Shown piece by piece: positions 373-23,005 of a stretch of DNA of 33,388 bases. The notes under the pieces were generated by a model. That model saw only the letters and a list, made by a program, of their open reading frames with translations, was not told where the DNA came from and ran no database searches. The stretch spans positions 1 to 33,388 of the forward strand of contig JAFVHN010000046.1 of assembly GCA_017474515.1 (NCBI GenBank). Reading direction: 5' to 3'. The stretch comes from Prevotella sp. GTDB lineage: Bacteria > Bacteroidota > Bacteroidia > Bacteroidales > Bacteroidaceae. Numbering within the stretch: the first letter of the stretch is position 1; each line of letters opens with the position of its first letter. The position numbers and the translations under genes are program-made.

Positions 373-595
373 AACACTCGTTTTGTAAAGATTTTTCATA
401 AATATTTTTTCCGATGAAAAGTTTGACCGCAAATTTCAAGGAGAGATTTTGAAGTTTGAGGGGAGAAATCTTGAAGATCTCTCTCCGAAATTTGCGGTCA
501 AAACAGGCGATATTTTGAAGCTATTGATTATCAATGAGTTATAAAACCGGCGCATTTTTGCCGAAATTGTCAAGATTTTTTACCATTTTCCGAGT
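373..595 (+). repeat. Dispersed hairpin element, copy 1
   Basis: This is one of three related intergenic elements. The core is an imperfect inverted repeat with a left arm at about 421-450 (starts TTTGACCGCAAATTTC) and a right arm at about 475-504 (ends GAAATTTGCGGTCAAA), around a loop of about 24 nt containing GTTTGAGGGGAGA. Flanks with TTTTGTAAAGATTTTTC on the left and TTTTTTACCATTTTC on the right match those of the copy at 15510-15740 in the same orientation. An 8-bp inverted pair, AACACTCG at 373-380 and CGAGTGTT at 591-598, brackets this copy only. No protein is apparent. Confidence 0.8.
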
Positions 596-693
596 GTTAT
601 AAAAGTTTAAATTTTGGGGACCGAAACGATGTTTTCAATGGCTTTTAGTTTGTTTTTTTCATGTGCTCGGAAAGAGTTTTCCGGCCCTTCTTT

Positions 694-718
694 CACTTGG
701 AAATGAAAAGAAAAACAA
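694..718 (+). promoter_or_regulatory. 25-nt box shared with the PBP upstream region
   Basis: This box has 23 of 25 identities with the reverse complement of 15469-15493; the shared core is GGAAATGAAAAGAAAA. It starts 65 nt before the -7 box of lysS, while the second copy starts 56 nt before the -7 box of the PBP gene. It could be a regulator site, an upstream promoter element or a repeat remnant. The similarity is visible; the role is inference. Confidence 0.45.
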
Positions 719-758
719 TTTTTCACTTTTCACTTTTCTCTTTTACCTTATTTATTTG

Positions 759-766
759 TACCTTTG
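759..766 (+). promoter_or_regulatory. Bacteroidota-type -7 box for lysS
   Basis: TACCTTTG fits the Bacteroidota sigma-ABfr -7 consensus TAnnTTTG and lies 27 nt before the lysS ATG. The upstream -33 TTTG element is not clear. Confidence 0.65.
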
Positions 767-793
767 CACCAAATTTTGTTATTTTAACGACGT

Positions 794-2578
794 ATGAATA
801 TCTTAGAATTAAGTGAACAAGAAATAGGCAGGCGGCAAAGCTTGCAGGAACTGCGCAATATGGGCATCGACCCGTATCCCGCCGCCGAGTATGCAACCAA
901 TGCTTTTAGTGCAGACATCAGAAATAATTTCACCGATGGCCCGGAGGTTGCCGAAGGCGCTACGATGACTGAAGGCACGGAGGTGTGCATTGCCGGCCGC
1001 ATGATGAGCCGCAGGGTGATGGGTAAAGCCTCGTTTGTGGAGTTGCAGGACTCGAAAGGCCGCATACAAGTATATATCACCCGCGACGACATCTGCCCGG
1101 GCGACAACAAGGACCTTTATAATGTGGTGTTCAAGAAACTGCTCGATATCGGCGATTTCATCGGCGTAAAAGGCTTCGTGTTCCGCACGCAGACCGGCGA
1201 GATTTCCGTCCACGCCAAGGAGCTCACCCTGCTTTCGAAGAGCCTGAAGCCCCTGCCCATCGTGAAATACAAGGACGGCGTGGCCTACGACAAGTTCGAC
1301 GACCCTGAGTTGCGCTATCGCCAGCGGTATGTGGATTTGGTGGTGAACGACGGCGTGAAGGAAACCTTCCTCCAGCGTGCCACCGTGTTGCGCACCCTTC
1401 GCCGCGTGCTCGACGATGCCGGCTACACCGAGGTGGAGACGCCCACGCTTCAGAGCATTGCCGGCGGTGCCTCGGCGCGGCCCTTCATCACCCATTTCAA
1501 CGCCCTCGACCAGGACATGTACATGCGCATAGCCACCGAACTCTACCTGAAGAGGCTCATCGTGGGCGGCTTTGAGGGCGTCTATGAGATTGGCAAGAAC
1601 TTCCGCAACGAGGGCATGGACCGCAACCACAACCCCGAGTTCACCTGCATGGAACTCTACGTTCAATATAAGGACTACAACTGGATGATGTCGTTCACCG
1701 AGAAGTTGCTCGAAACCATCTGCATTGCCGTGAACGGCAAGGCCGAGCGCGAAATCGACGGCAACATCATCTCGTTCAAGGCTCCCTACCGCCGTCTGCC
1801 CATCCTTGAAGCCATTGAGGAAAAGACCGGCTTCGACTGCAACGGCAAGACGGAAGAGGAAATCCGCGCCTTCTGCAAGGAAAAAGGCATGGACGTTGAC
1901 GACACGATGGGGAAGGGCAAGCTCATCGACGAGCTGTTCGGCGAATTTTGCGAGGGCACTTTCATCCAGCCCACCTTCATCACCGACTATCCCGTGGAAA
2001 TGTCGCCGCTGACGAAGATGCACCGCTCGAAACCCGGCCTTACCGAGCGCTTTGAGCTGATGGTGAACGGCAAGGAATTGGCCAACGCCTATTCCGAGCT
2101 GAACGACCCCATTGACCAGGAGGAGCGCTTCGTGGAGCAGATGCGGCTGGCCGACAAAGGCGACGACGAGGCCATGGTCATCGACCACGACTTCCTTCGC
2201 GCCCTGCAATACGGCATGCCGCCCACCAGCGGCATCGGCATCGGCATCGACCGCCTGGTGATGCTCATGACGGGCAAGACGTTCATCCAGGAGGTGCTCT
2301 TCTTCCCGCAGATGAAACCCGAGAAGAAGGCTCCGCAGAGCACCGTGGCCGAATGGGCCGAGATTGGCGTGCCCGAGGAATGGGTGCCCGTATTGCGCAA
2401 GGCCGGCTTCAACCTCGTTCAGAACATCAGGGAGGAAAAGGCGCAGGGACTGCAACAAAAGATTGGTGAAATCGTGAAGAAATACAAACTCGACATGAAG
2501 AAACCGACGGTGGATGAAGTCCAGGCTTGGATAAGCCTCACCCCCGACCTCTCTCCAAAAGGAGAAGGGAGTAAATAG
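794..2578 (+). CDS. lysS: Lysyl-tRNA synthetase, class II
   Basis: Charges tRNA-Lys with lysine using ATP, in the cytoplasm. An N-terminal OB-fold anticodon-binding domain lies at about residues 60-150, followed by the class II catalytic domain. Motif 2 is [20 protein letters not shown] near residue 270, and motif 3 is [12 protein letters not shown] near residue 480. At 594 aa the protein is slightly longer than usual for the family. The last 13 residues ([13 protein letters not shown]) are encoded by a 42-bp intergenic-type repeat (2536-2577), so the native protein probably ended near VQAWIS. The ATG is preceded by a Bacteroidota promoter box. The next gene, gpsA, lies on the same strand about 220 bp away. 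Identification is firm. Confidence 0.98.
2536..2577 (+). repeat. 42-bp C-rich repeat inside the lysS 3' end
   Basis: The repeat begins CCTCACCCCCGACCTCTCTC and contains an imperfect CTCTCC/GGAGA foldback. Its reverse complement recurs at 2759-2800 with 34 of 42 identities. It is read in frame as the lysS tail and supplies its stop codon region. Translated forms such as LTPxxSPxGEGS are a hallmark of this kind of dispersed repeat in Bacteroidota (from memory). Confidence 0.75.
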
Positions 2579-2758
2579 TGATGGCTGCCACTTTTAGAGG
2601 TTGATGTAGGCTATCACAACTCTTCGCAACAGGAAGAGCATTTCATATTCTTAGTCAACAGACCTAACGATGTTGCCATGAGCATTGGAACCATTATAAC
2701 AATTAGCGCCCTTCTGGTAAGGGAGTGAGGATGTTATGCGAATTGGAACAATTAAAAC
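2579..2758. other. lysS-gpsA spacer without a recognisable gene
   Basis: About 180 bp between two inverted copies of the 42-bp repeat. It contains two loosely similar segments (around CATTGGAACCATTATAACAA and AATTGGAACAATTAAAACTA). I see no convincing promoter or gene; it is probably repeat-derived spacer. Confidence 0.5.
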
Positions 2759-2800
2759 TATAAACTTCCCTCTCCCCTTGGAGAGGGGGCGGGGGTGAGG
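2759..2800 (-). repeat. 42-bp C-rich repeat, inverted copy before gpsA
   Basis: Inverted partner of 2536-2577 (34 of 42 identities). Its core, CTCTCCCCTTGGAGAG, is a compact hairpin. The GTG at 2795, a possible gpsA start, lies inside the repeat, which argues for the ATG at 2804. The hairpin next to the start codon could influence gpsA expression (inference). Confidence 0.75.
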
Positions 2801-2803
2801 CCT

Positions 2804-3799
2804 ATGTTCGACTGCGGAAGTATAGCTATTATTGGCGGCGGAAGCTGGGCAACGGCCATTGCCAAGATTGTGGTAGGGCACACCCACCACATCGGCTGGT
2901 ATATGCGCCGCGACGACCGCATAGAGGATTTCCGGCGCATGGGCCACAACCCGGCCTATCTCACCAGCGTGCATTTCGACATTGACGAGATAGATTTCTC
3001 GAGCGACATCAACAAAATCGTACAAAACTACGACACCCTTGTCTTTGTGACGCCGTCGCCCTATTTGAAGAACCACCTGAAGAAGCTCAAGACGCGCATC
3101 AAGGACAAGTTCATCATCACCGCCATCAAGGGCATCGTGCCCGAGGACAACCTCACCTGCTCGGAATATTTCCACCAGGTCTATGACGTGCCCTACGGCA
3201 ACCTGGCCTGCATAGGCGGTCCGAGCCATGCCGAGGAGGTGGCCCTTGAAAGGTTGTCGTATCTCACCATAGGCTGTGCCGACCGCGAGAAGGCGGAGAG
3301 CTTTGCCGAGCTTATTGCCAGCGACTTCATCAAGACAAAGACCTCGAGCGACGTTATAGGCATTGAATACTCGTCGGTGCTGAAAAACGTCTATGCCATT
3401 GCCGCCGGCATCTGCTCGGGCCTGAAATACGGCGACAATTTCCAGAGCGTGCTCATGTCGAATGCCGTGCAGGAAATGAACCGCTTCCTCAACAACATCC
3501 ACCCCATCGACCGCAATATCAACGACTCGGTGTATATGGGCGACCTGCTGGTGACGGGCTATTCCAATTTCTCGCGCAACAGGACTTTCGGCACCATGAT
3601 AGGCAAGGGCTACAGCGTGAAGTCGGCGCAGATAGAAATGGAAATGATTGCCGAGGGCTTCTTCGGCACGAAGTGCATGAAGGAAATCAACCGCCACCGC
3701 CATGTCAACATGCCCATTCTCGACGCCGTTTACAACATTCTCTATGAGCGCATCTCGCCTCAGATAGAAATAAAGCTGCTAACCGACTCTTTCCGATAA
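2804..3799 (+). CDS. gpsA: Glycerol-3-phosphate dehydrogenase [NAD(P)+]
   Basis: Reduces dihydroxyacetone phosphate to sn-glycerol-3-phosphate for phospholipid synthesis, in the cytoplasm. The N-terminal Rossmann fold shows IAIIGGGSWATAIAKIV, followed by DTLVFVTPSPYL. The conserved substrate lysine region is SSVLKNVYAIAAGICSGLKYGDN, and FSRNRTFG lies further on. The length of 331 aa is normal. The frame stays open upstream to a GTG at 2795, but that codon sits in a repeat, so I chose the ATG at 2804. The next gene starts 1 nt after this stop, suggesting co-transcription. In many Bacteroidales lysS-gpsA is followed by pgi (from memory); here it is followed by unrelated genes. Confidence 0.95.
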   Translation: MFDCGSIAIIGGGSWATAIAKIVVGHTHHIGWYMRRDDRIEDFRRMGHNPAYLTSVHFDIDEIDFSSDINKIVQNYDTLVFVTPSPYLKNHLKKLKTRIKDKFIITAIKGIVPEDNLTCSEYFHQVYDVPYGNLACIGGPSHAEEVALERLSYLTIGCADREKAESFAELIASDFIKTKTSSDVIGIEYSSVLKNVYAIAAGICSGLKYGDNFQSVLMSNAVQEMNRFLNNIHPIDRNINDSVYMGDLLVTGYSNFSRNRTFGTMIGKGYSVKSAQIEMEMIAEGFFGTKCMKEINRHRHVNMPILDAVYNILYERISPQIEIKLLTDSFR

Positions 3800-3800
3800 A

Positions 3801-4667
3801 GTGAAAAAACCGCCGCTTTATGTCCTGCTTTTGCTGGCATTGTTGTCGGCACCGTGGAAGGTGCTGGGCCAGACAATACTCGACAGCCTCTATGTCGTGG
3901 TGACCATCCAGCCCAACGGCGACGGCAAGATAGTTGAAAAGCGCATGATGCACGTGGGGCAGGAAGGCACCGAGCTCTTCATTCCGGTGAACAGGCTCGA
4001 CGCCCAAAGTCGCCTCAGCGGTTTCAAGGTGTTCGACGAACACGGAGAACTCTATTACGAGTATGTTTCGGACTGGGAGTCGCTTCGGTCGCGCGACCAG
4101 AAAACCTTGAAATGCAGCATTGTGCCTGGCGACGACAACTCCTTTGAACTATGTTGGGGAATGGGTCACGACGGCCTGCGCACCTATTGGGTCAGCTACA
4201 CCATTACGAACCTTGTGCGCAGCTTCAGCGATGTTGACGGGTTCAAGCGCGAGCTGGTGGCCCCCGGCGGCTTTCCTTTGCCACGCTACACCAAGGTCAT
4301 CATTACCAAGGACGGCGAGGAATTGAAAAAAGAAGATGTTGAGGTAGGCGGCGGAGGATTTAACGGCGACGTCCACTTTGGCAATGTCAGCGTGGTGGCA
4401 GAAAGCAAAATACCCATGACGGAAAACGACTCCATACTGGTGAGCTGTAAATTCCGCAAAGGCATCTTCAACCCACAGTTGGTGAGCGACATGACCTTCG
4501 ATGAGGTATATACAAATACGCCGCTACCACATTATAATAATATAATAGGCGCCGTCAAGACATTGGGCACACTGGCGAAGGCCGCCGTTCTTGCCGTCAT
4601 AGCAGCTGTGGCCGCCCTGTTTGCCTTCGTGGTGCTGATGAAACGGAAAAAGGAAACAAATAAATAA
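3801..4667 (+). CDS. DUF2207-like single-pass membrane protein
   Basis: A 288-aa protein with a signal peptide (MKKPPLYVLLLLALLSAPWKVLG), an extracytoplasmic domain of about 230 residues, and one C-terminal membrane helix (about 258-280) ending in the basic tail KRKKETNK. The domain opens with a 'V.IQPNGDGKIVEKRMM' strand pattern that resembles the N-terminal part of DUF2207 membrane proteins; this family call is tentative and no function is known. The start is GTG, forced by the gpsA stop 1 nt upstream, with no in-frame ATG before the signal sequence. It ends 8 nt before the secreted protease gene, so gpsA, this gene and the protease probably form one transcript. Confidence 0.6.
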   Translation: MKKPPLYVLLLLALLSAPWKVLGQTILDSLYVVVTIQPNGDGKIVEKRMMHVGQEGTELFIPVNRLDAQSRLSGFKVFDEHGELYYEYVSDWESLRSRDQKTLKCSIVPGDDNSFELCWGMGHDGLRTYWVSYTITNLVRSFSDVDGFKRELVAPGGFPLPRYTKVIITKDGEELKKEDVEVGGGGFNGDVHFGNVSVVAESKIPMTENDSILVSCKFRKGIFNPQLVSDMTFDEVYTNTPLPHYNNIIGAVKTLGTLAKAAVLAVIAAVAALFAFVVLMKRKKETNK

Positions 4668-4675
4668 AAACAATC

Positions 4676-7600
4676 ATGATGAAAAAACTCTTTAAGAAAA
4701 CTACGGTGTTGTTTGTCGCAATGCTGGCATGCTTTCCTCTGGCCGTCATGGCCCAGATTGATGCCTCCGACAAACTGTCTGTAAGCACGCAGATGTTCCT
4801 TGATGAGCTTGAAGGCCGTACCTCATTCAAGAAGAGCACACCCGCCCCAAACATCGGCCATCCCCGCCAGAATGCACCCCGCATGAGGGAACGGGGGAAG
4901 AACCGGCCGGGCATGTTTGCCTCGCCCGACACCATCGACGGCAAGGCCTACATCTCTGCCTTCATACGTCTTGACAACAACAAGGACCTTAGTGCCCTTG
5001 AAGCCCTTGGCGTGAAGGTGGGCGCAAAGTTCGACAATGGCCTCATCACCGCCGACATCCCCGTGGAGAACGTCAGGCAGGTGGCTGCCCTGGCCAACGT
5101 GAGCAGCGTCAATGTGGCCACCGTCATGCGCATGCAAACCGACAAGGCACGTCAGTACACCAACACCGACGACGTGCTCACCCTCTCGCCCGACGCCATC
5201 CGTGCAGGATTGCCCAATAGCTACGACGGCACCGGCGTGCTGCTCGGCATCATCGACAGCGGCATAGACTTCCAGCATGTGGCCTTCAAAGACAAAAACG
5301 GCAACAGCAGGATTAAGGGTGCCTACGTCTATGACGGCTGGAACACCAAGACCTACACCTCCGTGAGCGACACTGAACCCACCACCGACAACGATGAGGA
5401 AGACCACGGCACCCACACCAGCTCGACGGCGGGCGGCTCCAGTGTCGTTGTCAGTGGAAGCAGTGTCACCGTGACCGACAACCACGGTTCGGCCACCTAT
5501 GGCGGCATGGCTCCCGGCGCCGACCTTTACCTTTGCGGACTTAGTTCACTGGTGAGCACCAAGATTGCCGAGAGTTTTCAGAAAATCATCAATTATGCCG
5601 ACTCCCACAACATGCCCGTAGTGGTGAGCAATAGCTGGGGCTCACAGGGCGGCGCCCACGACGGCTCGGGCGACCTGGCCAGTGTTATCAACCAGTATTT
5701 CAACGACAACAAGCCCAACCACATCTGCCTCTTTGCCTCGAGCAACGACGCCGGACAGGCACCGGCTTCCGAGGGAGGAGGTTTCCACTTCTGCGGCACC
5801 ACGTCGAAAAACAATCCCCTGGGAAGCATCTTCAGGTATGCCTACGGCTACGATGACAACGGCTACTACTACGACGGAGCCATTGACGCGTGGACACGCT
5901 CGTCGTTCACTGGAAGCCTGGCATGCCGAATCTTTGTTCTCGATGCCAACAACGGCAACGTGCTCACCTCGGTGGAGAAAACCACTTCGGGCAACGTGAG
6001 CGGACTCTCAAGCTATTACTCCGGAACCCTTAGCGTCAATTTCTATTCTTCAAACGGAAAAAAACAAGTGAAGGTGTCAGCAAGCAATCTCAGTTCAAGG
6101 AGCTACGGAGGCTATACCCTTGCCGTGCAATTCTATCCCACCGGCAACAGCAGCACGTTCATCGACGTGTGGAGTGAGGACTATGCCTATTTCACCAATT
6201 ACCTTACCACGCCGGGCTATACCTGGACGCAAGGTTCCGACGACATGAGCGTCAGCGACGATGCCACCGTGGCCAATGTCATCTCCGTAGGTGCCTACGT
6301 TTCCAAGACCAGCGTGAAGGACTACCGCAACAGGACATACAGCATCTCGGGAACGGTGGGCGACATCGCCGACTTCTCAAGCTATGCCACCGCCGACCAA
6401 AGTCCCACGGGCATTGCTTATCCCTGGATTTCGGCTCCCGGTTCCACTGTTGTGGCCGCCGTCAACCATTTCGACACCTCGGGAGCAACGAGTTATATCA
6501 ACGGCAACAGTAGTAACTACGGCCTGTACCGCGTCAATAGCAACACCACCAATCCCTACGGCAACATGAGCGGCACGTCGATGGCCACCCCCGTGGCCGC
6601 CGGTATCGTGGCCCTGTGGTTGCAGGCCGCCAACGACAACGGCGCACAGCTCAACACCTCTGAGGTGAAGCGCATTATGCAGGCCACCGCTATCAACGAC
6701 TCCTGGACCACCACCGGTGCCAACGCCTCGCACTTTGGCAATGGCAAGATAGACGCTTTGGGTGGCATACAGGAAATTCTCAACAACACCTGCTCGCCAC
6801 TCATTACCGCCGAGCCCGCCGAACTGCAGTTTGAGGGCTTTGCCACAAGAAGTTACACACAGACGGTCAACGTCTCCGGCCTGCGCTTGCGCGGCGACGT
6901 CACGCTCACCATCGAGGGCGACGAGTGCTTCACCGTGGAGCCTTCCGTCATTTCGCCCGAAGACAAAACGCTCGAAGCCGAGGTCACCGTCACCTGGTCA
7001 CCCCTCGAGGCCGGCACTTCCGCAGCAAGCCTTGTCATCACCACCCAGGATGCAGAGCCCGTCACCATCGCCCTTTCAGGCAATGCCGAGGCGACCCTTC
7101 CCGCACTCATCATCCCCTCGACAGAAATCAGTTTCAACACGAAGACAGGGGCCGCTCAGGAACGCACGTTCAACATTGGCGGACGCTTTGTAACTGAGCC
7201 TGTTACCCTGACACTTGACGACCCGACCGGACTCTTTGCCATCGACCGCGAGGAAATCCCTGCCGACGAAATCAACGAGGAGGCCACCGCCGCCGTCGTC
7301 CTTTCCTTCATGTCTGACGAGGAGAGCGAATATGCCGCAACCCTTACGGTAAGCACGCCGGGCGTGGAGCCTGTTGTTGTGCCCATCACGGCCAAGACCT
7401 TCAGTGGAGGCACCGCCGCCGACACGTTCCTCAACCTCCTCAGCTACGCCACTATCGACGATGTGGGATGGGACCAGACGGTCGTAGAGAACCTCTATGC
7501 CTACAACGAAGACGAGGAGAGCCGCACCGCCTGGCTCACCCTGCCCAGCTATGGCGCCTATATGTCGGCAAAGTCTGCCGACAATCCTCAACGCTGGATT

Positions 7601-8857
7601 TCCTACCACGGAACCACCAACGGCGGACAGTCCTGGGACGCCACCGACGTCTTCCAGGGCAGCGAAGCCTATTTCTCCGGTAGCGCACGATGCATGGCCG
7701 TCTCAAAGTCCACGAACGTCGTGGAGCAGACCCTTGCTTTCTATGTCACCGGATGCACCGCCGCCCGCGCCCTTGGCAAGAACACTAAGAATGCCAATGA
7801 CGACGTGCCCATCTCGCTGAGGGTTTATGAGTGTACGATGGGCGATGACGGCAATCCCGTGGCCGCCTCACAACCCCTCACCAGCGATGCCAACGGCACC
7901 GCCAAGGCCAATGTAACCCTCGCCGTGGAAGGTCTCGATCCTTCCGCCATCTATAAGGTTGAAGTCGGCCTCTACAGAAGCTATTTCTACGAGATTGCCC
8001 TTCAGATGGCATTGCCCGAGCCGCCCGTTCCCCAGCCTGAATATTGTGAACTCACCGTGGGCGAAAGCCAGATGGCAACCTTCCATGCCGAAAGCCAGCT
8101 GGACATCAGCGGCGAAACAGGGCTTACCGGCATCTATTATTGCTATGAGGTGGCCGACGGAGCAGTATTCCTGCGGCCTGTCGAGGGCGACATCCTGCCC
8201 GCCAACACCGCCGTTGTGGTGCGTGCCAACCCCGGCACCTACCAGCTGGAAAAGGTTTCTATAGAAGGCGTTGAAGATATTGCAGACAACCTGCTTATGG
8301 TCTTCTCGCCCGAACAGGAGGAAACCAATCCTGAAGGAAACACCGGCGATGACCCCAACACTGGTGATGATCCCGGCACTGGCGATGACCCCGGTACAGG
8401 TGATGACCCCGGTACAGGTGATGACCCCGGCACCGGCGATGACCCCGGTACAGGTGATGATCCCGGCACCGGTGACGATCCCGGCACCGGTGATGATCCC
8501 GGCACTGGCGATGACCCCGGCACCGGCGATGACCCCGGCACCGGCGATGATCCCATAACAGTCATTCTCACTTATGTCGATGACTCCGCTAACCCGCATT
8601 TCGCAGTCAGCGACCTTTCCTCTCTTTCGGAAGGAACCGTCTATCTCGCCTATTCCCCCGTGGTGGCTCCCAACCCCGCGAAACGCTTCTACCTCATTTT
8701 TGAGGGCGAGCACACCACGGTGCCCACTGCCATCAACAGCCTCACACAGGCCACTGCCGACGCTTATTGGTACACGTTGCAGGGCATCAGAATGGCAACA
8801 CGTCCCACGCAAAAAGGACTTTACATCCATCAGGGTAGAATCATCAGGGTGGAATAA
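4676..8857 (+). CDS. Secreted subtilisin-like (S8) serine protease with GDDP repeats
   Basis: A 1393-aa exported protease. It has a signal peptide (about 1-26, ending AVMAQ), an I9-like propeptide region (about 80-165), and an S8 catalytic domain (about 185-700). The catalytic triad is visible: Asp194 in IIDSGID, His244 in DHGTHT, Ser635 in SGTSMATP; Asn357 in SSNDAG is the probable oxyanion residue. A long insertion separates Asn357 and Ser635. Two beta-sandwich modules follow at about 705-805 and 810-910, then a module at about 1115-1350 interrupted by twelve GDDP hexapeptide units (about 1224-1293). The C-terminus (YTLQGIRMATRPTQKGLYIHQG) resembles type IX secretion sorting tails of Prevotella proteins, suggesting surface attachment or secretion; that is inference. 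Substrate unknown. It starts 8 nt after the upstream membrane protein. Confidence 0.92.
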   Translation: MMKKLFKKTTVLFVAMLACFPLAVMAQIDASDKLSVSTQMFLDELEGRTSFKKSTPAPNIGHPRQNAPRMRERGKNRPGMFASPDTIDGKAYISAFIRLDNNKDLSALEALGVKVGAKFDNGLITADIPVENVRQVAALANVSSVNVATVMRMQTDKARQYTNTDDVLTLSPDAIRAGLPNSYDGTGVLLGIIDSGIDFQHVAFKDKNGNSRIKGAYVYDGWNTKTYTSVSDTEPTTDNDEEDHGTHTSSTAGGSSVVVSGSSVTVTDNHGSATYGGMAPGADLYLCGLSSLVSTKIAESFQKIINYADSHNMPVVVSNSWGSQGGAHDGSGDLASVINQYFNDNKPNHICLFASSNDAGQAPASEGGGFHFCGTTSKNNPLGSIFRYAYGYDDNGYYYDGAIDAWTRSSFTGSLACRIFVLDANNGNVLTSVEKTTSGNVSGLSSYYSGTLSVNFYSSNGKKQVKVSASNLSSRSYGGYTLAVQFYPTGNSSTFIDVWSEDYAYFTNYLTTPGYTWTQGSDDMSVSDDATVANVISVGAYVSKTSVKDYRNRTYSISGTVGDIADFSSYATADQSPTGIAYPWISAPGSTVVAAVNHFDTSGATSYINGNSSNYGLYRVNSNTTNPYGNMSGTSMATPVAAGIVALWLQAANDNGAQLNTSEVKRIMQATAINDSWTTTGANASHFGNGKIDALGGIQEILNNTCSPLITAEPAELQFEGFATRSYTQTVNVSGLRLRGDVTLTIEGDECFTVEPSVISPEDKTLEAEVTVTWSPLEAGTSAASLVITTQDAEPVTIALSGNAEATLPALIIPSTEISFNTKTGAAQERTFNIGGRFVTEPVTLTLDDPTGLFAIDREEIPADEINEEATAAVVLSFMSDEESEYAATLTVSTPGVEPVVVPITAKTFSGGTAADTFLNLLSYATIDDVGWDQTVVENLYAYNEDEESRTAWLTLPSYGAYMSAKSADNPQRWISYHGTTNGGQSWDATDVFQGSEAYFSGSARCMAVSKSTNVVEQTLAFYVTGCTAARALGKNTKNANDDVPISLRVYECTMGDDGNPVAASQPLTSDANGTAKANVTLAVEGLDPSAIYKVEVGLYRSYFYEIALQMALPEPPVPQPEYCELTVGESQMATFHAESQLDISGETGLTGIYYCYEVADGAVFLRPVEGDILPANTAVVVRANPGTYQLEKVSIEGVEDIADNLLMVFSPEQEETNPEGNTGDDPNTGDDPGTGDDPGTGDDPGTGDDPGTGDDPGTGDDPGTGDDPGTGDDPGTGDDPGTGDDPGTGDDPITVILTYVDDSANPHFAVSDLSSLSEGTVYLAYSPVVAPNPAKRFYLIFEGEHTTVPTAINSLTQATADAYWYTLQGIRMATRPTQKGLYIHQGRIIRVE
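8345..8554 (+). repeat. 18-bp in-frame tandem repeat, 12 GDDP units
   Basis: Twelve consecutive units encode GDDP followed by a two-residue linker (NT once, GT ten times, then IT at the end of the block). Codons vary between GGC/GGT, GAT/GAC and CCC, so units are near but not exactly identical. The 18-bp period keeps the frame, so copy-number change by slippage would only lengthen or shorten an acidic linker. It is a coding minisatellite, not a CRISPR array. Confidence 0.95.
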
Positions 8858-9020: not shown

Positions 9021-9111
9021 CCAGTCCAGACGGCATCCGACTGCAGTCCAGACGGCATCCGACTGCAGTCCAACCCGCAGAAGGACTGGAGTCGTTTGCG
9101 GTCTGGACTGG
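9021..9111. repeat. 22-bp repeat array with inverted end, locus 1
   Basis: Two direct 22-bp units (9032-9053 and 9054-9075; core GCATCCGACTGCAGTCCA) are preceded by CCAGTCCAGAC (9021-9031) and followed by an inverted unit ending GTCTGGACTGG (9101-9111). The left 29 nt (9021-9049) and right 29 nt (9083-9111) are reverse complements at 25 of 29 positions, so the whole block can fold back. A related block is at 29071-29203. It lies between the protease terminator and the tkt promoter. Confidence 0.85.
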
Positions 9112-9113
9112 CA

Positions 9114-15493: not shown

Positions 15494-15509
15494 GGAGTTT
15501 ATCATTTAC

Positions 15510-15740
15510 CATTTAGCGCGGCGCCCTCTTTTGTCAAGATTTTTCAATGATTTTTGATTATCCCATGAGGCTTGACCGCATATTTCGGGGAGAGATTTGG
15601 CAGTTTGAGAGGAGAGAATTGGCAAATCTCTCCCCGAAATTTACCGTCAAACTCGGGGCGATTTGCAAAACGTTGAAATTCAACAACTTACAAAAACGGC
15701 GAAAAATAGTCTGTTTTGTCAATTATTTTTACCAGTTTCC
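15510..15740 (+). repeat. Dispersed hairpin element, copy 2
   Basis: Core arms lie at about 15571-15599 and 15623-15651 with a few mismatches, around a 23-nt loop (15600-15622) containing GCAGTTTGAGAGGAGAGAAT. The left flank has TTTTGTCAAGATTTTTCAA, and the right flank has CAACTTACAAAAACGGCG, TGTTTTGTCAATTATTTTTA and ACCAGTTTCC. Flanks and loop run in the same orientation as copy 1. It lies between the PBP upstream region and tRNA-Ser. Short reading frames across it are by-products of the hairpin. Confidence 0.85.
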
Positions 15741-16055: not shown

Positions 16056-16068
16056 CAAAGTAAATTTG

Positions 16069-16184: not shown

Positions 16185-16907
16185 CCAAAAAGGGCAACCC
16201 TTACCAATGCCCAATGCAGGAGGTTCATGTCCCTGACGAAAGAGGATCTTCCCAAAGGACGTAACACCGAGCTGTACCGTGATTTCTGCACCTTTATATT
16301 GTATACCTGCCCGAGTAACAGTACAGAGGTCTTTCAGGACAGTGTTGAGTGGATGAACAGCCAGATTGCCACCTGGGAGGACCATCTGAAGACCAACGAG
16401 AAGCATAAAGTGGAAGCCCACAATAAACGCTCTAATCTGGAATCGAAGAAAAAGGCCCACAACTACTCCTTCGACAGTGGCACGAGTATGTCTTATACCT
16501 CGCAGACTACTGATAACGAAGGCTATGTGCACGACAACAAATTCACCTGCGTATCTGTAGTGTCCAATAAAATTGGGTTTACCGTCAATAGGATGGGCTA
16601 TACGCTGCAGATAGAAAACGAGCTCGGCGGCGGAACTCACTGGGTTGACGGCTGGGAGGAACAAGAGAGCGCAACCTTCGAATATACGTTGAGAGAAGAC
16701 GCCAACACCGAGTCATTGGAAGACTACAACGATGCCATCTCTGTCGATGTCTACGAATATGGCAAATACGGCCCCATCTTCCGCACCATCGGCGGACAGA
16801 CCAGTAAGCCCTACGAGGGCCAGGTGGTCACCAAGTATTATCCCAACTTTGACGCTTTGAACTTTTTTGAAAAAAGTTCAAAGCGTCAAAGTTGGGTTAA
16901 CAAATGA
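16185..16907 (+). pseudogene. Fragment of a larger Bacteroidota protein, truncated at both ends
   Basis: The first ATG with a strong AGGAGG is at 16227 (226 codons), but coding-like sequence in frame (PKRATLTNAQC) runs upstream to a TAG at 16182, so the 5' part of the gene seems lost. There is no signal peptide. The text 'YRDFCTFILYTCPSNSTEVF' and 'YGPIFRTIGGQTSKPYEG' resembles, from memory, a segment of very large uncharacterised secreted proteins of Bacteroidales. The natural reading stops making sense at PNFDALNFF, where a perfect palindrome (16842-16896) begins and supplies an artificial C-terminus. No function can be assigned. It lies directly downstream of tRNA-Ser, a common site for insertion debris. 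It might still be translated. Confidence 0.6.
16842..16896. repeat. Perfect 55-nt palindrome (27-bp arms, 1-nt centre)
   Basis: The arm beginning CCCAACTTTGACGCTTTGAA is repeated exactly in reverse complement around a single central G at 16869. No ordinary terminator has such a short centre and long arms, and no T-run follows. It forms the last codons of the upstream gene fragment. Confidence 0.97.
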
Positions 16908-16913
16908 GAATTC

Positions 16914-16953
16914 GAAAAGCCGCCAGTTTCCATACGGAAGCTGGCGGCTTTTC
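16914..16953 (+). terminator. Terminator-like hairpin
   Basis: GAAAAGCCGCCAG (16914-16926) pairs with CTGGCGGCTTTTC (16941-16953) around a 14-nt loop that can itself pair (TTTCC/GGAAG). The A-run and T-run are within the stem, as in bidirectional terminators. Confidence 0.85.
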
Positions 16954-17059
16954 AAATGTTTCAGATAAAACCGATGATGCTCCTTGAATGAGTGGTTACG
17001 GAAGTTCCACATTGAGGGCCCTGAAACCCTAAAAAAAGCAAAATAGCATATTGTATAAA

Positions 17060-17176
17060 ATCGATATTTTAAATTTGTTAATTGATTTATATCGATATAT
17101 GATTGTTTTTGTCGATAGAGTTTTATTGAATGTCTTTATTTTTACATTCGTAAATAAAAAAGTATCTTTACCTTTA
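17060..17176 (+). promoter_or_regulatory. AT-rich susC upstream region with TATCGATA palindromes
   Basis: ATCGATAT (17060-17067) and ATATCGAT (17089-17096) form an inverted pair, with the palindrome TATCGATA at 17090-17097 and a related GTCGATAG at 17111-17118. Near-consensus -7 boxes TATCTTTA (17164-17171) and TACCTTTA (17169-17176) follow about 50 nt before the susC ATG. A regulator site is plausible but not shown. Confidence 0.4.
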
Positions 17177-17224
17177 TACCCGATTTTTTTTAATTACTTA
17201 ATTATTTACTAAAAACAATCGTTT

Positions 17225-20200
17225 ATGAAGCAAACAAAATCAAGACTGATGATCATGCTCCTGTTCCTGATGAGCGTGTCGCTGGCCTTTGCCCAGCACG
17301 CGGTGACGGGGACGGTGACCGACGGCTCTGGCGAGCCCGTCATCGGCGCGAGCGTGATGGTGAAAGGCTCCACAGCGGGCACGGTGACCGACCTCGACGG
17401 CCGTTTCACCATTCCCAATGCCCCTGCCTCCGGCACCTTGGTGGTGTCGTATGTGGGCTACCGCACACAGACCATTTCCCTTGACGGCCGTAGCTCGGTG
17501 AGCGTGACGCTGGAAGAGGACAAGCAACTGCTCGACGAAGTGGTGGTTGTGGGTTACGGTGTGCAACGCAAGAGCGACGTCACCGGCGCCTTGTCGCGCG
17601 TGGGCGAGAAAGAGCTGAGCTCGAAGCCCGTGAACAATGCCTTTGAGGCCCTGCAGGGCCGCGCCGCCGGTGTCGATATCACCACCAGCGAGCGCCCAGG
17701 CACCATTGGCAGCATTGCCATCCGCGGCCAGCGCTCCATCTCCGCCAGCAGATCTCCCCTCTACGTGGTTGACGGCGTGCCCCTGCAGGCCGGAGGCATT
17801 GAGACGCTGAACCCCCGCGACATAGAGTCGGTGGACATCCTGAAAGATGCCTCCTCGACAGCCATCTACGGTAGCCGCGGCGCCAACGGCGTAGTGCTGG
17901 TGACCACCAAGCACGGTCAGGAAGGAAAGATGCAGCTGAGCTACAACGGCTCTTATACATTCCAGAAAATTGTTGACAAGAGTCCCGCTATGAGCGCCAG
18001 CGACTACATCACTTGGCGCCGTTGGGCAAAATATTATCAGAGTCCCGACAAGTACACACCCGGCGACCAGCCCGTGCAAGCTCAGGACAAGGAATTCTTC
18101 GACGGCGACGAAACGGCGTGGAACAACGTGCTGAAGGGCTGGGCCGGCGGCAGTTGGGACGGCTCCAAGGTCACCGACACCGACTGGACGGACTTCGTGA
18201 CTCGCACCGGCGTCACCCAGGAGCACTCCATCAGCGCCCGCGGCGGCACGAAGAACCTTTCCGGTTTCGTGTCGTTCGGTTACCTAAATAATAAAGGTAC
18301 GCAAAAAGGCCAGGGCTACGAGCGCTACAATTTCACCGCCTCTGCCGACGTGAAGGGCACCAACTGGCTGAAGGCCGGCGGCTCCTTCACCGGCTCCTAT
18401 AGCGTTCAGAAGTACGGCTACTCGAAAGCCTACGGCACCAGCAGCGGCCCCACCGACCTCTATGGTGCGGCCAAGGCCATCCTGCGCTACACGCTGCCCT
18501 ACGACGAGAAAGGTGACATCATCGGCCAGCCCGGCGGCTCCTCCACCAACACCTACTCGGTGATTGACGAGTGGACGAAATCAACCGACAATCGCGAGAA
18601 CTTCCGCTTGCTGGGCAGCTTCTATGCATTGGTTGATTTCGGACAGATAGTGGAAGGGCTTGAAGGACTGCAGTGGAAGACTCAGTTCGGCCCCGACTTC
18701 CGCTACTATCGCAACGGCAACTTCCTCGATGCCAGCTCCATCAGCCGTGCCGGCGGCAACAATACCGTGAGCCGCGGCGACGGCCGCCAGCTGGCCTGGA
18801 CGCTCGACAACATGCTTCTTTTCAACAGGGACTTCGGCCTGCACACGCTGGGCCTGACCCTTTTGCAGAGTGCCTCGAAGACAAGCACCGAGACGAGCAG
18901 CATCAGTGAGGAGAAAGTGCCCATTCCTTCGTTCCTCTGGAACAACCTGGGCGCCGTTGACGTCACCGACACACAGTACAAGGTGGGCATTGGCTCAGGA
19001 CTTTCCGAGAGTGCACTGTCGTCATATATGGCCCGCGTGAACTACGCCTTCATGGACCGCTACCTGCTCACCGCCTCGGCCCGCTGGGACGGTGCTTCGG
19101 TGCTGGCAGAAGGCAAGAAATGGGACTTCTTCCCCTCGATGGCCCTCGGATGGCGCATGGAGCAGGAAGACTTCCTGAAAGACGTGAACTGGCTTGACCA
19201 GTTAAAGATGCGCTTCGGTGTGGGTGTCACCGGCAACTCGGCCGTCAACCCTTACGGCACCCTGGGCGTCATCAGCTCCTACTGGATGCCATTCAGCACA
19301 GGCAACTCGCAGATTCTCGTTACCAACGAGCCCTACTATTCCTCGGGCTCCAATCAGATGCCCAACAAGAACCTGGGCTGGGAGAAGACTACACAGTGGA
19401 ACATCGGTATCGACTTCAGCTTCCTGAAAGGGCGCGTGGGCGGCACCATCGACCTCTACACTTCACGCACCAACGACCTGATTCTTGACATGTCGATACC
19501 TTCGCTTTCGGGTTATCCCTCCATGAAAACCAACATCGGTAAGACCAAGAACAAGGGTATAGAAGTTACGTTGAATACCATTCCCGTGATGACCGGCGAC
19601 TTCACCTGGACCTCGAATCTGAACTTCGCATGGCAGAAAGATGAAATCGTGGAGTTGGCCAACGGCAAGCAAGACGACTTCAACAACGCGTGGTTCATCG
19701 GCGAAAGCATCAGTGTCTATTACGGCTACGACAACGCCGGCCTGTGGCAGGAAAGCGATGCCGCCGAGATGGCGAAGTTCAACGAGAACGGTGAGAAATT
19801 CACCCCCGGTAGTGTGAGACCTGTTGACCAAAACGGCGACTACAAAATCAATGCCGACGACCGCGTGGTGCTGGGCAACCGCAACCCGCGACTGACGGCA
19901 GGATGGAGCAACACCATCTCGTGGAAAGGCTTTGAGCTCATGATCGACCTGCAGGGACGCTTCAAGTACATGATCAGCACGGGCGGCGAAGGACAGCTCG
20001 GCATGTACCAGCAGCGCGAAATCAGCTACTGGACACCCAACAACACGGGAGCCGATTGGCAGAAGCCTGTTTACAACCAGTCGGGCGGCGACCCCTATTC
20101 CGGATTGCTCGGATTCATGGACGCCTCGTTCATCAAGGTGCGCAACCTCTCACTGGCCTACAACTTCGACAAGAAGATGCTGAAATCCATCGGCATCAAC

Positions 20201-20329
20201 GGGCTGAAACTCTATGTGCAGGGCCGGAACCTCGGCATGCTCTACTCATCGGTGGACTTCATGGACCTCGATACTGGTCGCACATACTTCAACCGCGGCA
20301 TCACTGCCGGCGTCACGGTGGATTTCTAA
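17225..20329 (+). CDS. SusC/RagA-family TonB-dependent outer-membrane transporter
   Basis: Imports bound glycan or peptide fragments across the outer membrane with energy from TonB, together with the SusD-like partner downstream. The signal peptide ends SLAFA-Q (residue 24). A carboxypeptidase-regulatory-like beta domain (about 27-102) and the SusC-type segment LLDEVVVVGYG precede the plug, with SPLYVVDGVP and DIESVDILKDASSTAIYGSR. The barrel fills the rest and ends in phenylalanine (GVTVDF). At 1034 aa it is full length with no frameshift. No sigma-factor-interacting STN domain is present. susD follows after 36 nt. No glycoside hydrolase, lyase or protease gene is adjacent, so the ligand cannot be inferred. 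Confidence 0.97.
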   Translation: MKQTKSRLMIMLLFLMSVSLAFAQHAVTGTVTDGSGEPVIGASVMVKGSTAGTVTDLDGRFTIPNAPASGTLVVSYVGYRTQTISLDGRSSVSVTLEEDKQLLDEVVVVGYGVQRKSDVTGALSRVGEKELSSKPVNNAFEALQGRAAGVDITTSERPGTIGSIAIRGQRSISASRSPLYVVDGVPLQAGGIETLNPRDIESVDILKDASSTAIYGSRGANGVVLVTTKHGQEGKMQLSYNGSYTFQKIVDKSPAMSASDYITWRRWAKYYQSPDKYTPGDQPVQAQDKEFFDGDETAWNNVLKGWAGGSWDGSKVTDTDWTDFVTRTGVTQEHSISARGGTKNLSGFVSFGYLNNKGTQKGQGYERYNFTASADVKGTNWLKAGGSFTGSYSVQKYGYSKAYGTSSGPTDLYGAAKAILRYTLPYDEKGDIIGQPGGSSTNTYSVIDEWTKSTDNRENFRLLGSFYALVDFGQIVEGLEGLQWKTQFGPDFRYYRNGNFLDASSISRAGGNNTVSRGDGRQLAWTLDNMLLFNRDFGLHTLGLTLLQSASKTSTETSSISEEKVPIPSFLWNNLGAVDVTDTQYKVGIGSGLSESALSSYMARVNYAFMDRYLLTASARWDGASVLAEGKKWDFFPSMALGWRMEQEDFLKDVNWLDQLKMRFGVGVTGNSAVNPYGTLGVISSYWMPFSTGNSQILVTNEPYYSSGSNQMPNKNLGWEKTTQWNIGIDFSFLKGRVGGTIDLYTSRTNDLILDMSIPSLSGYPSMKTNIGKTKNKGIEVTLNTIPVMTGDFTWTSNLNFAWQKDEIVELANGKQDDFNNAWFIGESISVYYGYDNAGLWQESDAAEMAKFNENGEKFTPGSVRPVDQNGDYKINADDRVVLGNRNPRLTAGWSNTISWKGFELMIDLQGRFKYMISTGGEGQLGMYQQREISYWTPNNTGADWQKPVYNQSGGDPYSGLLGFMDASFIKVRNLSLAYNFDKKMLKSIGINGLKLYVQGRNLGMLYSSVDFMDLDTGRTYFNRGITAGVTVDF

Positions 20330-20365
20330 TTATTGCTTAATCACCCATTAAAGAAACATACGAAC

Positions 20366-22501
20366 ATGAAATATCTGAATAGCAAAACACTCTGCGGTGC
20401 ATTGATGTCGCTCACCCTCCTGGGCACTACCTCGTGCGGCGACGACTTCCTGAACGAAAACGCCGGGCACCTATATACCGATGCACTGCTGGAAGACGAG
20501 ACGGGAGCACTGAAGATGGCTGCCGGACTCTATGGCAACATTCGATGGCACTTCGGCTATGAGTGGGCATACGGCATTACGCTCTATGGCTGCGACGAGT
20601 TCACCAACGGCGCCGACCTTACCTCCGAATGCTGGAACACCTACGACAACCGCCTGGGACCGCAGGACTGCACAACGGCACTGGGAGCCGCCAACAAGAA
20701 CTGTCCGGCCGTGTCGGCACTCTGGGACCAGATGTACTACGGCATCTCCACGGCCAACCTCATTATCAGCAAGGCTGAGAACGTGAAGAACGAAGACAGC
20801 CGCAACAAGGCACTCGGCGAGGCATACTTCCTGCGTGGATACAACTACTACCGCCTGTTCTGCCAGTACGGCGCCGTGGTGCTGGAAACGGAGCCTGCCA
20901 ACGGCACGGTGAAGAAGAACTACACCCGCGCCACCGAGGATGAGACGCTCGGTCTCGTCATCTCCGACTTTGAAAATGCCTACAACATGCTGCCCAAGAC
21001 CAAATGGCGCGGCAACGGCACATGGACACGCTACACCGCCGCTCACTTCCTGGCAAAGGCACTGCTCTACCGCCAGTCGGAGCGCTGCGCATCGTGGGCT
21101 TCCAAGTACGACAAGGCTACCGACCTCAACCGCGTCATCTCCCTCTGCGACGAGGTGATAGCCGCTTGCCCGCTGGCTGCCGACTACTGGGACCTCTACG
21201 CCAAATGGACGGGAGTGGACTGCAAAAACGAAGAGCTCTCTGAAATCCTCATGGCTGCTGAGCACAACGAGGACAACACCACCCAGGGACGGTTCGGAAA
21301 CCGCACCTATAACTACTTCGACCCGCAGTTCTCCAACTTCTCCGGAGGATGGGTGCAGCGCGGACAATACATCGGCGGCATGGACTTCCAGCGTTGCCGT
21401 CCCACCGAATACACCTACTCGGTGTTCGACAATGTGAACGATGCCCGCATGTGGAAGACCTTCAAGACCGTCTATGGACTGAACAATGCCGCAAAGAGCG
21501 ATGCCGACGTGGTGGCCACCAACGGCATACAGCCCGACCAGGTGCCCGACCTCGGAGACGAGGGCATTATCTTCATCCTCAACAAGAAGAGCGACACACG
21601 CTTCGACGGCAACCCCTACGGCACCTTCGGCCGCGGCGGCGACGCCCACAGCTTTGTCAACCCCCGCACCGGCAAGTGGGTGCCCAACGCCTTTGTGACC
21701 TTCCAGGACGGCAAGTATGTGCTCAACACCTACACCGGCAACCCCTCCACATCGAACGTCTTCTGCGGCATCAACAAGACCGCCGACGGATCGCGCACGG
21801 GTGAGAAGGGCGATGCCCACCGCGACGTCATCATGGCACGCACCGGCGAGACCTATCTCGTGAAGGCAGAGGCTCAGGTGCGCCTGGGCAACTACCAGGA
21901 TGCCATCAACACCGTCAACGTGCTGCGCGCCCGAGCCCAGTGGAAGAACGGCGAGAACCGCAGCTACTACACCGACGGCTCCATGGCCTTCCTGAAGGCT
22001 GATGGCGGCGATGCCGACAACAGCACGGCCAATGCCACCTCGGTGAAGAAGAACAAGGACAAGGCCGGAAACGTGCTCTCCAACACGCAGGCCTACTACG
22101 CCTCGATGACCCATACCAACACCTACTACCTCTCAACGGGCATCGAAGAGACCACGGCAGCCTCCGACCTGCAGATAAAGAGCTATTCTCAGCTGCCCGC
22201 CGAAGACGAGGCTGTGCTGGCCGCCATCGGTGCCAGCGGCGACTACGACCGCATGCTCAACTTCATCTTTAATGAGCGCACCCGCGAGTTGCTCGGTGAG
22301 TGGAACCGCTGGGACGAGCTGGCTCGTACAGGGCTCCTCGTTAAGCGTGCCAAGGCATTCAACCCCGAGGCTGCACCCAACGTGCAGGATCGCCACAACT
22401 ACCGTCCCATACCGCAGAAGTTCATCGACACCCTGCAGGGTGATGACGGCAACAACCTCAGCGATGCCGAAAAGAAAGCATGGCAGAACCCAGGTTACTA
22501 A
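20366..22501 (+). CDS. SusD/RagB-family outer-membrane lipoprotein
   Basis: Surface lipoprotein that forms the lid of the SusC channel and captures ligand. The signal peptide MKYLNSKTLCGALMSLTLLG ends in a lipobox with Cys24 (TTSC) followed by GDDFLNE, typical of the family. I chose the ATG at 20366 because it begins that signal sequence, although the frame is open from 20333. TPR-like segments such as GEAYFLRGYNYYRLFCQYG and the C-terminal RTRELLGEWNRWDELARTG are SusD signatures. At 711 aa it is longer than most SusD proteins (usually about 500-600). It is paired with susC and followed directly by a strong terminator, so this is a two-gene operon. Confidence 0.96.
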   Translation: MKYLNSKTLCGALMSLTLLGTTSCGDDFLNENAGHLYTDALLEDETGALKMAAGLYGNIRWHFGYEWAYGITLYGCDEFTNGADLTSECWNTYDNRLGPQDCTTALGAANKNCPAVSALWDQMYYGISTANLIISKAENVKNEDSRNKALGEAYFLRGYNYYRLFCQYGAVVLETEPANGTVKKNYTRATEDETLGLVISDFENAYNMLPKTKWRGNGTWTRYTAAHFLAKALLYRQSERCASWASKYDKATDLNRVISLCDEVIAACPLAADYWDLYAKWTGVDCKNEELSEILMAAEHNEDNTTQGRFGNRTYNYFDPQFSNFSGGWVQRGQYIGGMDFQRCRPTEYTYSVFDNVNDARMWKTFKTVYGLNNAAKSDADVVATNGIQPDQVPDLGDEGIIFILNKKSDTRFDGNPYGTFGRGGDAHSFVNPRTGKWVPNAFVTFQDGKYVLNTYTGNPSTSNVFCGINKTADGSRTGEKGDAHRDVIMARTGETYLVKAEAQVRLGNYQDAINTVNVLRARAQWKNGENRSYYTDGSMAFLKADGGDADNSTANATSVKKNKDKAGNVLSNTQAYYASMTHTNTYYLSTGIEETTAASDLQIKSYSQLPAEDEAVLAAIGASGDYDRMLNFIFNERTRELLGEWNRWDELARTGLLVKRAKAFNPEAAPNVQDRHNYRPIPQKFIDTLQGDDGNNLSDAEKKAWQNPGY

Positions 22502-22534
22502 ATAAAAAAGCCCCCAATCGGGGGCTTTTTTATT
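22501..22534 (+). terminator. Strong intrinsic terminator after susD
   Basis: A perfect 15-bp stem (22501-22515 with 22520-22534) contains CCCCC/GGGGG and closes a 4-nt AATC loop; the right arm includes a TTTTTT run. It starts at the last base of the susD stop codon. Confidence 0.95.
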
Positions 22535-22535
22535 T

Positions 22536-22704
22536 GAGTTATGAGTTATGAATGATGAGTTATGAATGATGAGTTTGAGTTATGAATTATGAATGATGAG
22601 TTTGAGTTATGAATTATGAATGATGAGTTATGAGTTATGAATGATGAGTTATGAGTTATGAATGATGAGTTTGAGTTATCAATGATGTTTGATGAGTTTT
22701 GAGT
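22536..22704. repeat. Imperfect tandem repeats of GAGTTATGAATGAT type
   Basis: About 170 bp of degenerate units built from GAGTTATGA, GAATTATGA and GAATGATGA. Similar units in the opposite sense occur near 95-120. It is non-coding, low-complexity spacer. Confidence 0.8.
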
Positions 22705-22772
22705 TGATATTCACCTTTCGCTTGTTCAAAAACTAATACCATTTTTCTTTATTTAAGACGGATAACTACATA

Positions 22773-23005
22773 GGGAAAAATTGGTAAAAAAAATTGACAA
22801 AATAGGCTGTTTTTGTATTGCTTTTGTAAGTTATTGAATATCAAGGATTAGGATTTTGTTTCAAGTTTGACCGCAAATTTCGGGGAGAGATTTGGCAGTT
22901 TGAGGGGAGAGAATTGGCAAATCTCTCCCCGAAATTTGCGGTCAAACCTCCCGAGGTTACCAAAAATCTTTGAAAAATCTTGACAAAAGGGCGCTACGCT
23001 AAATG
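22773..23005 (-). repeat. Dispersed hairpin element, copy 3 (flanks inverted)
   Basis: This is the best-preserved core: 30-bp perfect arms (22865-22894 and 22918-22947) around a 23-nt loop (22895-22917). Both flanks match copy 2 only as reverse complement (for example TTGAAAAATCTTGACAAAAG on the right and TTGACAAAATAGGCTG on the left), while the loop reads in the same direction as in copies 1 and 2. The right edge shares GCGC..CGCTAAATG with copy 2. It lies between the susD terminator and the minus-strand AraC gene. Confidence 0.88.

What the first reader, a model, noticed from the sequence alone, without database searches (positions are those of the whole stretch)
373..23005. A three-copy ~225-bp intergenic hairpin element in which one core has flipped relative to its flanks
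Copies at 373-595, 15510-15740 and 22773-23005 share a hairpin core (arms starting TTTGACCGCAAATTTC, perfect over 30 bp in copy 3) and about 60-110 bp of flank on each side. In copies 1 and 2, flanks and loop run in the same sense. In copy 3 both flanks match only as reverse complement, yet the 23-nt loop (GCAGTTTGAGG type) still reads in the plus sense. So the core has inverted within the element, either by recombination between the arms, by template switching at the hairpin, or by an enzyme acting in trans. The element encodes no protein and is not a known named family to me. It could be a non-autonomous mobile element, a regulatory RNA, or a nucleoid/termination site.
Basis: seen in the sequence. 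Interest (0 to 1): 0.75.

Follow-up and report, generated by a model that had tools for sequence, protein, structure and literature searches.

The report
Evenly spaced flipping palindromes in Prevotella
A rumen Prevotella carries over 200 copies of a short non-coding palindromic DNA element, placed unusually evenly along the chromosome, whose middle segment flips freely; a second species has its own version with a different sequence but similar spacing, which hints at a chromosome-organising site.

Summary
The three window copies are real, and the core of copy 3 is inverted relative to its flanks. They belong to a family (F1) with over 200 copies in this rumen Prevotella genome. In 1.13 Mb sampled, 80 strict copies share a core of exactly 81 bp: three tracts on a ~21-bp register between inverted arms. 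The middle tract points either way (40 versus 30), even between the most similar copies.

Sites are evenly spaced. With non-homologous 22-bp arrays included, 0 of 89 gaps are under 4 kb; random placement gives 17-30. A complete genome of another species has its own, different element with similar spacing (4 of 85 gaps under 4 kb; uniform null 17, minimum 6). Intergenic lag scans peak at 22, 44 and 66 bp in same-genus genomes, not in 210 kb from three other families. A third species has many pairwise-unrelated 22-bp arrays, but some lie close together.

Best reading: a DNA-level chromosomal site whose layout and spacing outlast its sequence; the flip is probably neutral template switching. Function is inferred, not shown. 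A mobile element with target immunity is the main rival. Nearest known kinds: BrickBuilt, REP/BIME.

The parts
381..586 (+). F1 copy 1, from left end motif (381-397) to right end motif (565-586); dyad TTGATTATCAA 524-534
422..502 (+). 81-bp core of copy 1, tract pattern RRY in flank sense
15529..15735 (+). F1 copy 2, from left end motif (15529-15545) to right end motif (15714-15735); dyad 15673-15683; conserved tail may reach about 15758
15571..15651 (+). 81-bp core of copy 2, tract pattern RRY in flank sense
22781..22988 (-). F1 copy 3, flanks on minus strand: right end motif 22781-22802, left end motif 22972-22988; dyad 22834-22844; conserved tail may reach about 22759
22866..22946 (-). 81-bp core of copy 3, tract pattern RYY in flank sense: middle unit inverted relative to copies 1 and 2
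9022..9111 (.). 22-bp-register array of unrelated sequence (F2, unit CAGTCCAGACGGCATCCGACTG) with an inverted end; fits the even spacing between copies 1 and 2
29053..29203 (.). second F2 array in the window (unit CAGTCCAAACCGCATCCGACTG) with an inverted end

Best explanation
The three copies belong to a species-specific family (F1, over 200 copies) of a class of intergenic elements in Prevotella: arrays of 22-bp-register, often dyad-symmetric DNA units. Shown: exact core length, free flipping of the middle unit, intergenic placement, and even spacing of the dominant families in two species with different element sequences. Inferred: they act as double-stranded DNA, as sites where a wrapping or bridging protein (a nucleoid protein or gyrase) or a supercoil-driven structure marks successive segments of mostly 5-15 kb, so that selection holds layout and spacing while the sequence is replaced from species to species. 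Also inferred: the flip is a neutral by-product of replication template switching inside the palindrome, which also keeps the arms matched and the inner units alike.
For: Core exactly 81 bp in 80 strict copies although copies differ. Even spacing in own genome: 107 sites, 0 of 89 gaps under 4 kb, CV 0.48; intergenic nulls 17-27 gaps under 4 kb, CV 0.73-0.85; uniform null 30. The 17 non-F1 arrays are all at least 4.7 kb from F1; null expects 8.6 within 3 kb. Complete genome G016: 86 sites in 800 kb, 4 of 85 gaps under 4 kb, uniform null 17.2 with minimum 6. Lag peak at 22, 44 and 66 in same-genus genomes. Stem mismatches G-T 83, A-C 105; on the transcript strand of 30 codirectional copies G-T 27, A-C 38: constraint looks like DNA, not RNA. 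Element-bearing gaps are enriched at transcription-unit borders (46 of 95 divergent or convergent against 82 of 287, P 6.5e-4). Flips independent of copy relatedness.
Against: No functional data. In G003, 3 of 13 gaps between 22-bp arrays are under 4 kb. Orthologous positions are not shown to be conserved (4 of 14 gene ends against 21 of 106). Orientation follows the genes in 23 of 30 codirectional copies, which plain DNA landmarks need not do. 8 of 28 contig ends in the draft lie within 1 kb of a site, so close pairs may be under-sampled there. F1 shows phased GC content but the non-F1 arrays do not. Dyad symmetry is significant in only 7 of 19 unit families.
Confidence: 0.4

Rival explanations
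1. A non-autonomous mobile element (MITE-like) moved in trans by an unidentified transposase; target immunity keeps new insertions several kb from existing ones; fixed length reflects what the transposase moves.
For: Sequence is species-specific: end motif 141 and 142 hits in own genome, 0 in 14 other same-genus genomes. High copy number. Defined ends. Positions not shown to be shared between species. BrickBuilt in P. gingivalis is described as a MITE with a 23-nt array.
Against: Ends are direct, not inverted, repeats. Non-homologous arrays keep the same distance from F1. No match on plasmids or phages. No transposase was tied to the ends; target duplications were not tested.
Confidence: 0.27
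2. Strong gyrase sites: the units phase AT- and GC-rich DNA for wrapping on gyrase, evenly spaced at transcription-unit borders to manage supercoils. This is a specific form of the best explanation.
For: E. coli gyrase motif has 10.75-bp GC periodicity, and BIME-2 elements are preferred sites (PMC6379681, passages). F1 core GC power peaks at 11.25 bp. 80 of 91 F1 sites exceed the genome's 99.9th percentile of a symmetric phased-GC score against 15 of 132 other long intergenic regions.
Against: Non-F1 arrays score no higher than controls (median 10.3 against 10.9). Over 181 bp the F1 peak at 13.75 bp is slightly higher than at 11, and the score ratio is also raised at 13.5. F1 copies are one family, so not independent. 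Third harmonic (7.33) is nearly as strong as 11 across arrays.
Confidence: 0.15
3. A transcribed RNA structure, terminator or transcript stabiliser at gene ends.
For: 23 of 30 codirectional copies run in gene direction; long perfect hairpin.
Against: No G-U excess on the transcript strand (27 against 38 A-C). 28 of 72 copies lie between divergent genes. No Rfam family at its cut-off. Would not explain even spacing.
Confidence: 0.08
4. The core is flipped by a dedicated recombinase as a phase-variation switch.
For: Both orientations are common and the arms are near-perfect inverted repeats.
Against: The loop is about 23 nt, far shorter than known invertible segments (recalled). Sub-units flip singly (right tract in 4 of 80). 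Palindrome template switching needs no special enzyme.
Confidence: 0.04

Closest known systems
BrickBuilt MITE of Porphyromonas gingivalis (PMC4596501; outline, section 5 and part 1 of 2 of section 7 read)
   Same: Bacteroidales, intergenic, restricted to a species and its near relatives, leader and tail around short units (23 nt there, about 22 here).
   Different: 19 copies with 1 to 22.8 direct units and IS5-like inverted ends there; here over 200 copies, fixed 81-bp core with inverted and flipping units, direct-repeat ends, even spacing.
REP / BIME elements (BIME-2 of E. coli; PMC6379681 passages, PMC2817692 listing only)
   Same: High-copy intergenic palindromes in alternating orientation; BIME-2 binds gyrase.
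   Different: No shared sequence recognised; here a 22-bp register and even genome spacing; no transposase of the RAYT kind tied to them.
BOX, ERIC and other intergenic repeats (recalled, not tested)
   Same: Modular or palindromic, high-copy, non-coding.
   Different: As recalled, no 22-bp register shared by unrelated sequences and no even spacing.
Hairpin-loop inversions in chloroplast DNA (recalled, not tested)
   Same: Small loops between inverted arms flip repeatedly during evolution.
   Different: There at isolated hairpins; here in a dispersed family of over 200 copies.

Membership tests
BrickBuilt MITE | 23-nt direct tandem units, variable in number | tested here: not met
   81-bp core in 80 strict copies with inverted units
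BrickBuilt MITE | IS5-like terminal inverted repeat GAGACCTTTGCA | tested here: not met
   4 matches with 2 mismatches in the window, none at an element, as expected by chance (3.17); ends are direct repeats
MITE in general | Terminal inverted repeats | tested here: inconclusive
   Outer ends read by eye only; direct repeats found, no inverted pair recognised
MITE in general | Target-site duplication and empty sites | not tested
   No close strain held; G016 too distant (median identity of orthologues 57%)
REP / BIME | Partner REP-associated tyrosine transposase | tested here: inconclusive
   One Y1 transposase (PF01797) in the genome, not at an element I examined and not classified further
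REP / BIME | High-copy intergenic palindrome | tested here: met
Strong gyrase site | Phased GC content of about 10.75 bp | tested here: inconclusive
   Met by F1, not by non-F1 arrays
Strong gyrase site | Gyrase cleavage in the cell | not testable with these tools
   Needs Topo-Seq
Known structured RNA | Match to an Rfam family at its cut-off | tested here: not met
   In the window only a tRNA reaches its cut-off; none over G016 elements in 120 kb

The most novel reading that the evidence does not exclude
Prevotella chromosomes are marked out by a sequence-free metronome: 22-bp-register palindromic arrays, written with a different sequence in each species (and often in each array), placed mostly 5-15 kb apart and read by their architecture, not their letters. 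Spacing and geometry would be inherited while sequence is not.
Probability: 0.35. Interest if true: 0.92.

Novelty: new variant of a known kind. Interest (0 to 1): 0.78.

Why it matters
Even spacing is, as far as I recall, unusual for a dispersed bacterial repeat. Here two species whose elements differ in sequence both keep them several kb apart, and in one of them non-homologous arrays keep the same distance. That points to a spacing rule, whether chromosome-domain function or insertion immunity, which can be tested in cultivable Prevotella. It bears on how bacteria set topological domain size, and on how hundreds of dispersed sites can change sequence together while keeping their shape.

Tried and rejected
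A long consensus pattern found nothing in named GTDB contigs. The whole-element DNA query matched 1 of 39 other genomes (G002, E 1.7e-4); there it led to a similar flank dyad beside a different 22-nt array. Literature: searches listed no paper on evenly spaced 22-bp arrays in Prevotella; they cover only open-licence PMC text. Rfam gave nothing for the element. Plasmids and phages gave no match. Conserved position: 7 of 10 lag-22 hits in 80 named loci lie 189-604 bp upstream of lysS, like window copy 1, but 7 of the 10 upstream regions that I printed show no array by eye, and the G016 test was not significant, so I do not claim it. The gyrase reading was weakened by the non-F1 arrays. One low-complexity tandem-repeat hit (C94:98444) was dropped; with it 1 of 90 gaps is under 4 kb. 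In one search, G016 sites within 1.5 kb were merged (90 to 86), and the null was merged likewise. My gene caller is home-made and covered only 48% of the 800-kb G016 sample, so the uniform null is the safer one there. Own contigs were chosen for length among contigs with hits; nulls keep the count per contig. One search printed its results and then ended with an error; one search failed and was rerun.
Full report
WHAT IS THERE. The window is contig 77 of a 3.51-Mb draft genome, 88% complete. Its LysS is 91% identical to that of a water-buffalo omasum MAG named Prevotella sp., so the host is probably a rumen Prevotella. The three copies exist as described. Their cores are 422-502, 15571-15651 and 22866-22946. 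Flank alignment puts copies 1 and 2 in plus sense and copy 3 in minus sense, while in flank sense the middle tract of copy 3 is turned the other way.

HOW MANY. The arm TTTGACCGCAAATTTC, with up to two mismatches, occurs 211 times forward and 216 reverse in the genome; the reversed control pattern 1 and 0 times. I sampled 1,130,669 bases on 18 contigs (14 of them whole), chosen for length among contigs with hits. They hold 80 strict copies with arm spacing 65, that is, a core of 81 bp. The other spacings in that scan were, as far as I checked, side matches inside the same elements, except C42:36841, which looks like a deletion remnant. A profile search gave 91 F1 sites at E below 1e-10.

ANATOMY. 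In flank sense: TTTTGTCAAGATTTTTC, about 25 bases, the 81-bp core, about 62 bases with a TTGANNNTCAA-type dyad and TTACAAAA, then TTTTGTCAAGATTTTT again with TTACC or CATAA behind it. Exact copies of the end motif stand 184-186 bp apart in the 9 pairs visible in the capped list. The core holds three tracts of GGGGAGA type about 21 bases apart, with AATCTTSAAGATT or TTGGCAA blocks between. The left tract is almost always purine, the right mostly pyrimidine, the middle either: RRY 40, RYY 30, RRR 4, unclear 6 of 80. The two inner blocks are of the same subtype in 69 of 73 typed copies (SS 45, GG 24, mixed 4; 7 not typed). Among the 50 pairs with the most similar flanks 26 agree in middle orientation, against 50% of all pairs. 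Flips are therefore fast compared with copy divergence.

DNA OR RNA. If the stem worked as RNA, G-U pairs should outnumber A-C mismatches on the transcribed strand. Over all 80 copies the counts are G-T 83 and A-C 105 in flank sense; on the transcript strand of 30 codirectional copies 27 and 38. No Rfam family reaches its cut-off over the element. The constraint looks like one on double-stranded DNA.

CONTEXT. No strict copy lies inside a gene of my simple caller. Of 72 with two neighbours, 30 are codirectional, 28 divergent and 14 convergent; 8 are at contig edges. Element-bearing gaps are less often codirectional than other gaps (49 of 95 against 205 of 287, P 6.5e-4). In 23 of 30 codirectional cases the flank sense follows the genes (counted; P 0.005).

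A CLASS, NOT JUST A FAMILY. Tandem-repeat analysis of the own sample showed 44 intergenic arrays of period 22, against 16 at period 20, 4 at 21 and 3 at 23; units of 7 to 10 and 14 bases are also common. Of the 44, 27 lie in F1 elements (24 strict, 3 diverged) and 17 have unrelated units, two of them in the window. A lag scan of intergenic DNA has its highest peak in the own genome at 22 (38 loci; 21: 1, 23: 0), with 13 at 44 and 8 at 66; lags 20 and 30 reach 12 each. G016 shows 22 hits at lag 22, 30 at 44, 20 at 66, and at most 1 at the other lags tested (17-27, 33). G010 gives 2 at lag 22 and none at the neighbouring lags. In 80 named Prevotella-type loci lag 22 gives 10 hits, the neighbouring lags 0 to 4. 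In 61.7, 68.4 and 80 kb from three genomes of other families lag 22 gives none. In G003, 15 arrays in 160 kb include one family of five and ten without detectable similarity to each other. Dyad symmetry of units averages 14.3 of 22 against 11.5 shuffled, and is below P 0.05 in 7 of 19 families.

SPACING. F1 and other arrays of the own sample together give 107 sites and 89 gaps after dropping one low-complexity hit. The shortest gap is 4.4 kb, the median 9.4 kb, CV 0.48; 78 gaps lie between 4.4 and 15.5 kb, 11 above. Random placement in intergenic regions of at least 100, 200, 300 or 400 bp gave mean CV 0.85 to 0.73 and on average 27 to 17 gaps under 4 kb, never fewer than 8 (3000 draws each). 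Uniform placement gave 30, never fewer than 17 (5000 draws). All 17 non-F1 arrays are at least 4.7 kb from F1. Because 8 of 28 contig ends lie within 1 kb of a site, the draft may hide close pairs. G016, a single contig of 3.17 Mb, is free of that doubt. It has its own element of about 400 bp, with end motifs TTTTGTAAAGATT and CATTTGTAAA, a TTTGATNGTCAA-type dyad followed by TTACAAAA, and units of GTAATTTG-AYG-CAAATTAC type. Ninety profile hits in 800 kb merge to 86 sites; 4 of 85 gaps are under 4 kb, 76 lie between 4.9 and 15.5 kb, 5 above; median 7.8 kb. Uniform placement gives 17 gaps under 4 kb (minimum 6), intergenic placement 23 (minimum 12). The CV there (0.60) is less extreme because of a few large gaps. 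G003 is the counter-example: 3 of its 13 within-contig gaps are under 4 kb. The rule thus seems to hold for dominant families, not for every array.

MECHANISM. Shown: the class, the register, the flips, and the spacing in two species. Inferred: the elements act as DNA sites that mark or insulate chromosome segments. The flip needs only template switching at a palindrome, which would also make arms match and units alike. A mobile element with target immunity is the strongest rival; element positions are not shown to be shared between species (4 of 14 gene ends against 21 of 106; none at 18 adjacent syntenic gene pairs in either genome). Gyrase is a concrete candidate reader: its E. coli motif has 10.75-bp GC phasing (PMC6379681, passages), and other gyrases show 10-11 bp (PMC12324340, passages). 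F1 cores phase at about 11.25 bp, but over 181 bp a 13.75-bp peak is slightly higher, and non-F1 arrays do not stand out.

KNOWN KINDS. BrickBuilt in P. gingivalis (PMC4596501; outline, section 5 and part 1 of section 7 read) shares the leader-array-tail plan but has 19 copies, variable unit number and IS5-like inverted ends; that end sequence is not at the window elements. REP/BIME share copy number, palindromes and, for BIME-2, gyrase binding. In the papers I could search I found no report of even spacing or of a 22-bp register shared by unrelated sequences. I rate it a new variant of a known kind, with a bolder reading in the section on the most novel reading.

Noticed in passing
16838-16900: Nearly perfect hairpin with 31-bp arms and a 1-nt loop at the end of the open frame 16227-16907.
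   Followed up: no
8306-8593: In-frame 18-bp repeat array (11 overlapping copies reported) inside the 1393-aa open frame 4676-8857.
   Followed up: no
22521-22713: Minisatellite of TGAGTTATGAATGATGAGTT type just upstream of copy 3; period 21, not counted in the 22-bp class.
   Followed up: no
2531-2579 and 2757-2805: Inverted repeat with CCCTCTCC/GGAGAGGG, similar in kind to 44-bp-period CCCCTCCCAAGGAGGGG arrays of G016.
   Followed up: partly
left ends of many F1 copies, e.g. 15502-15520: A second repeat of TTTATCATTTAGCGAAGCGCC type abuts the left end of many F1 copies.
   Followed up: no
G003 stretches L212-L215 and L236-L239: Ten 22-bp arrays with unrelated units in one genome, as if each arose locally. 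What sets the step at 22 bp is unexplained.
   Followed up: partly
L094, L167, L169 and other named loci: Long-loop hairpins with unrelated arms next to lysS in rumen Prevotella MAGs.
   Followed up: partly
L173 929-998 (G016): Match to the Bacteroidetes FopS sRNA family RF04319, away from the G016 elements.
   Followed up: no
G010:C1:110701-111609: 77-bp period array that looks like a CRISPR array by eye; left out of the 22-bp class.
   Followed up: no
L240 (G000:C24:23184-23495): Single Y1 transposase (PF01797) in the genome.
   Followed up: no
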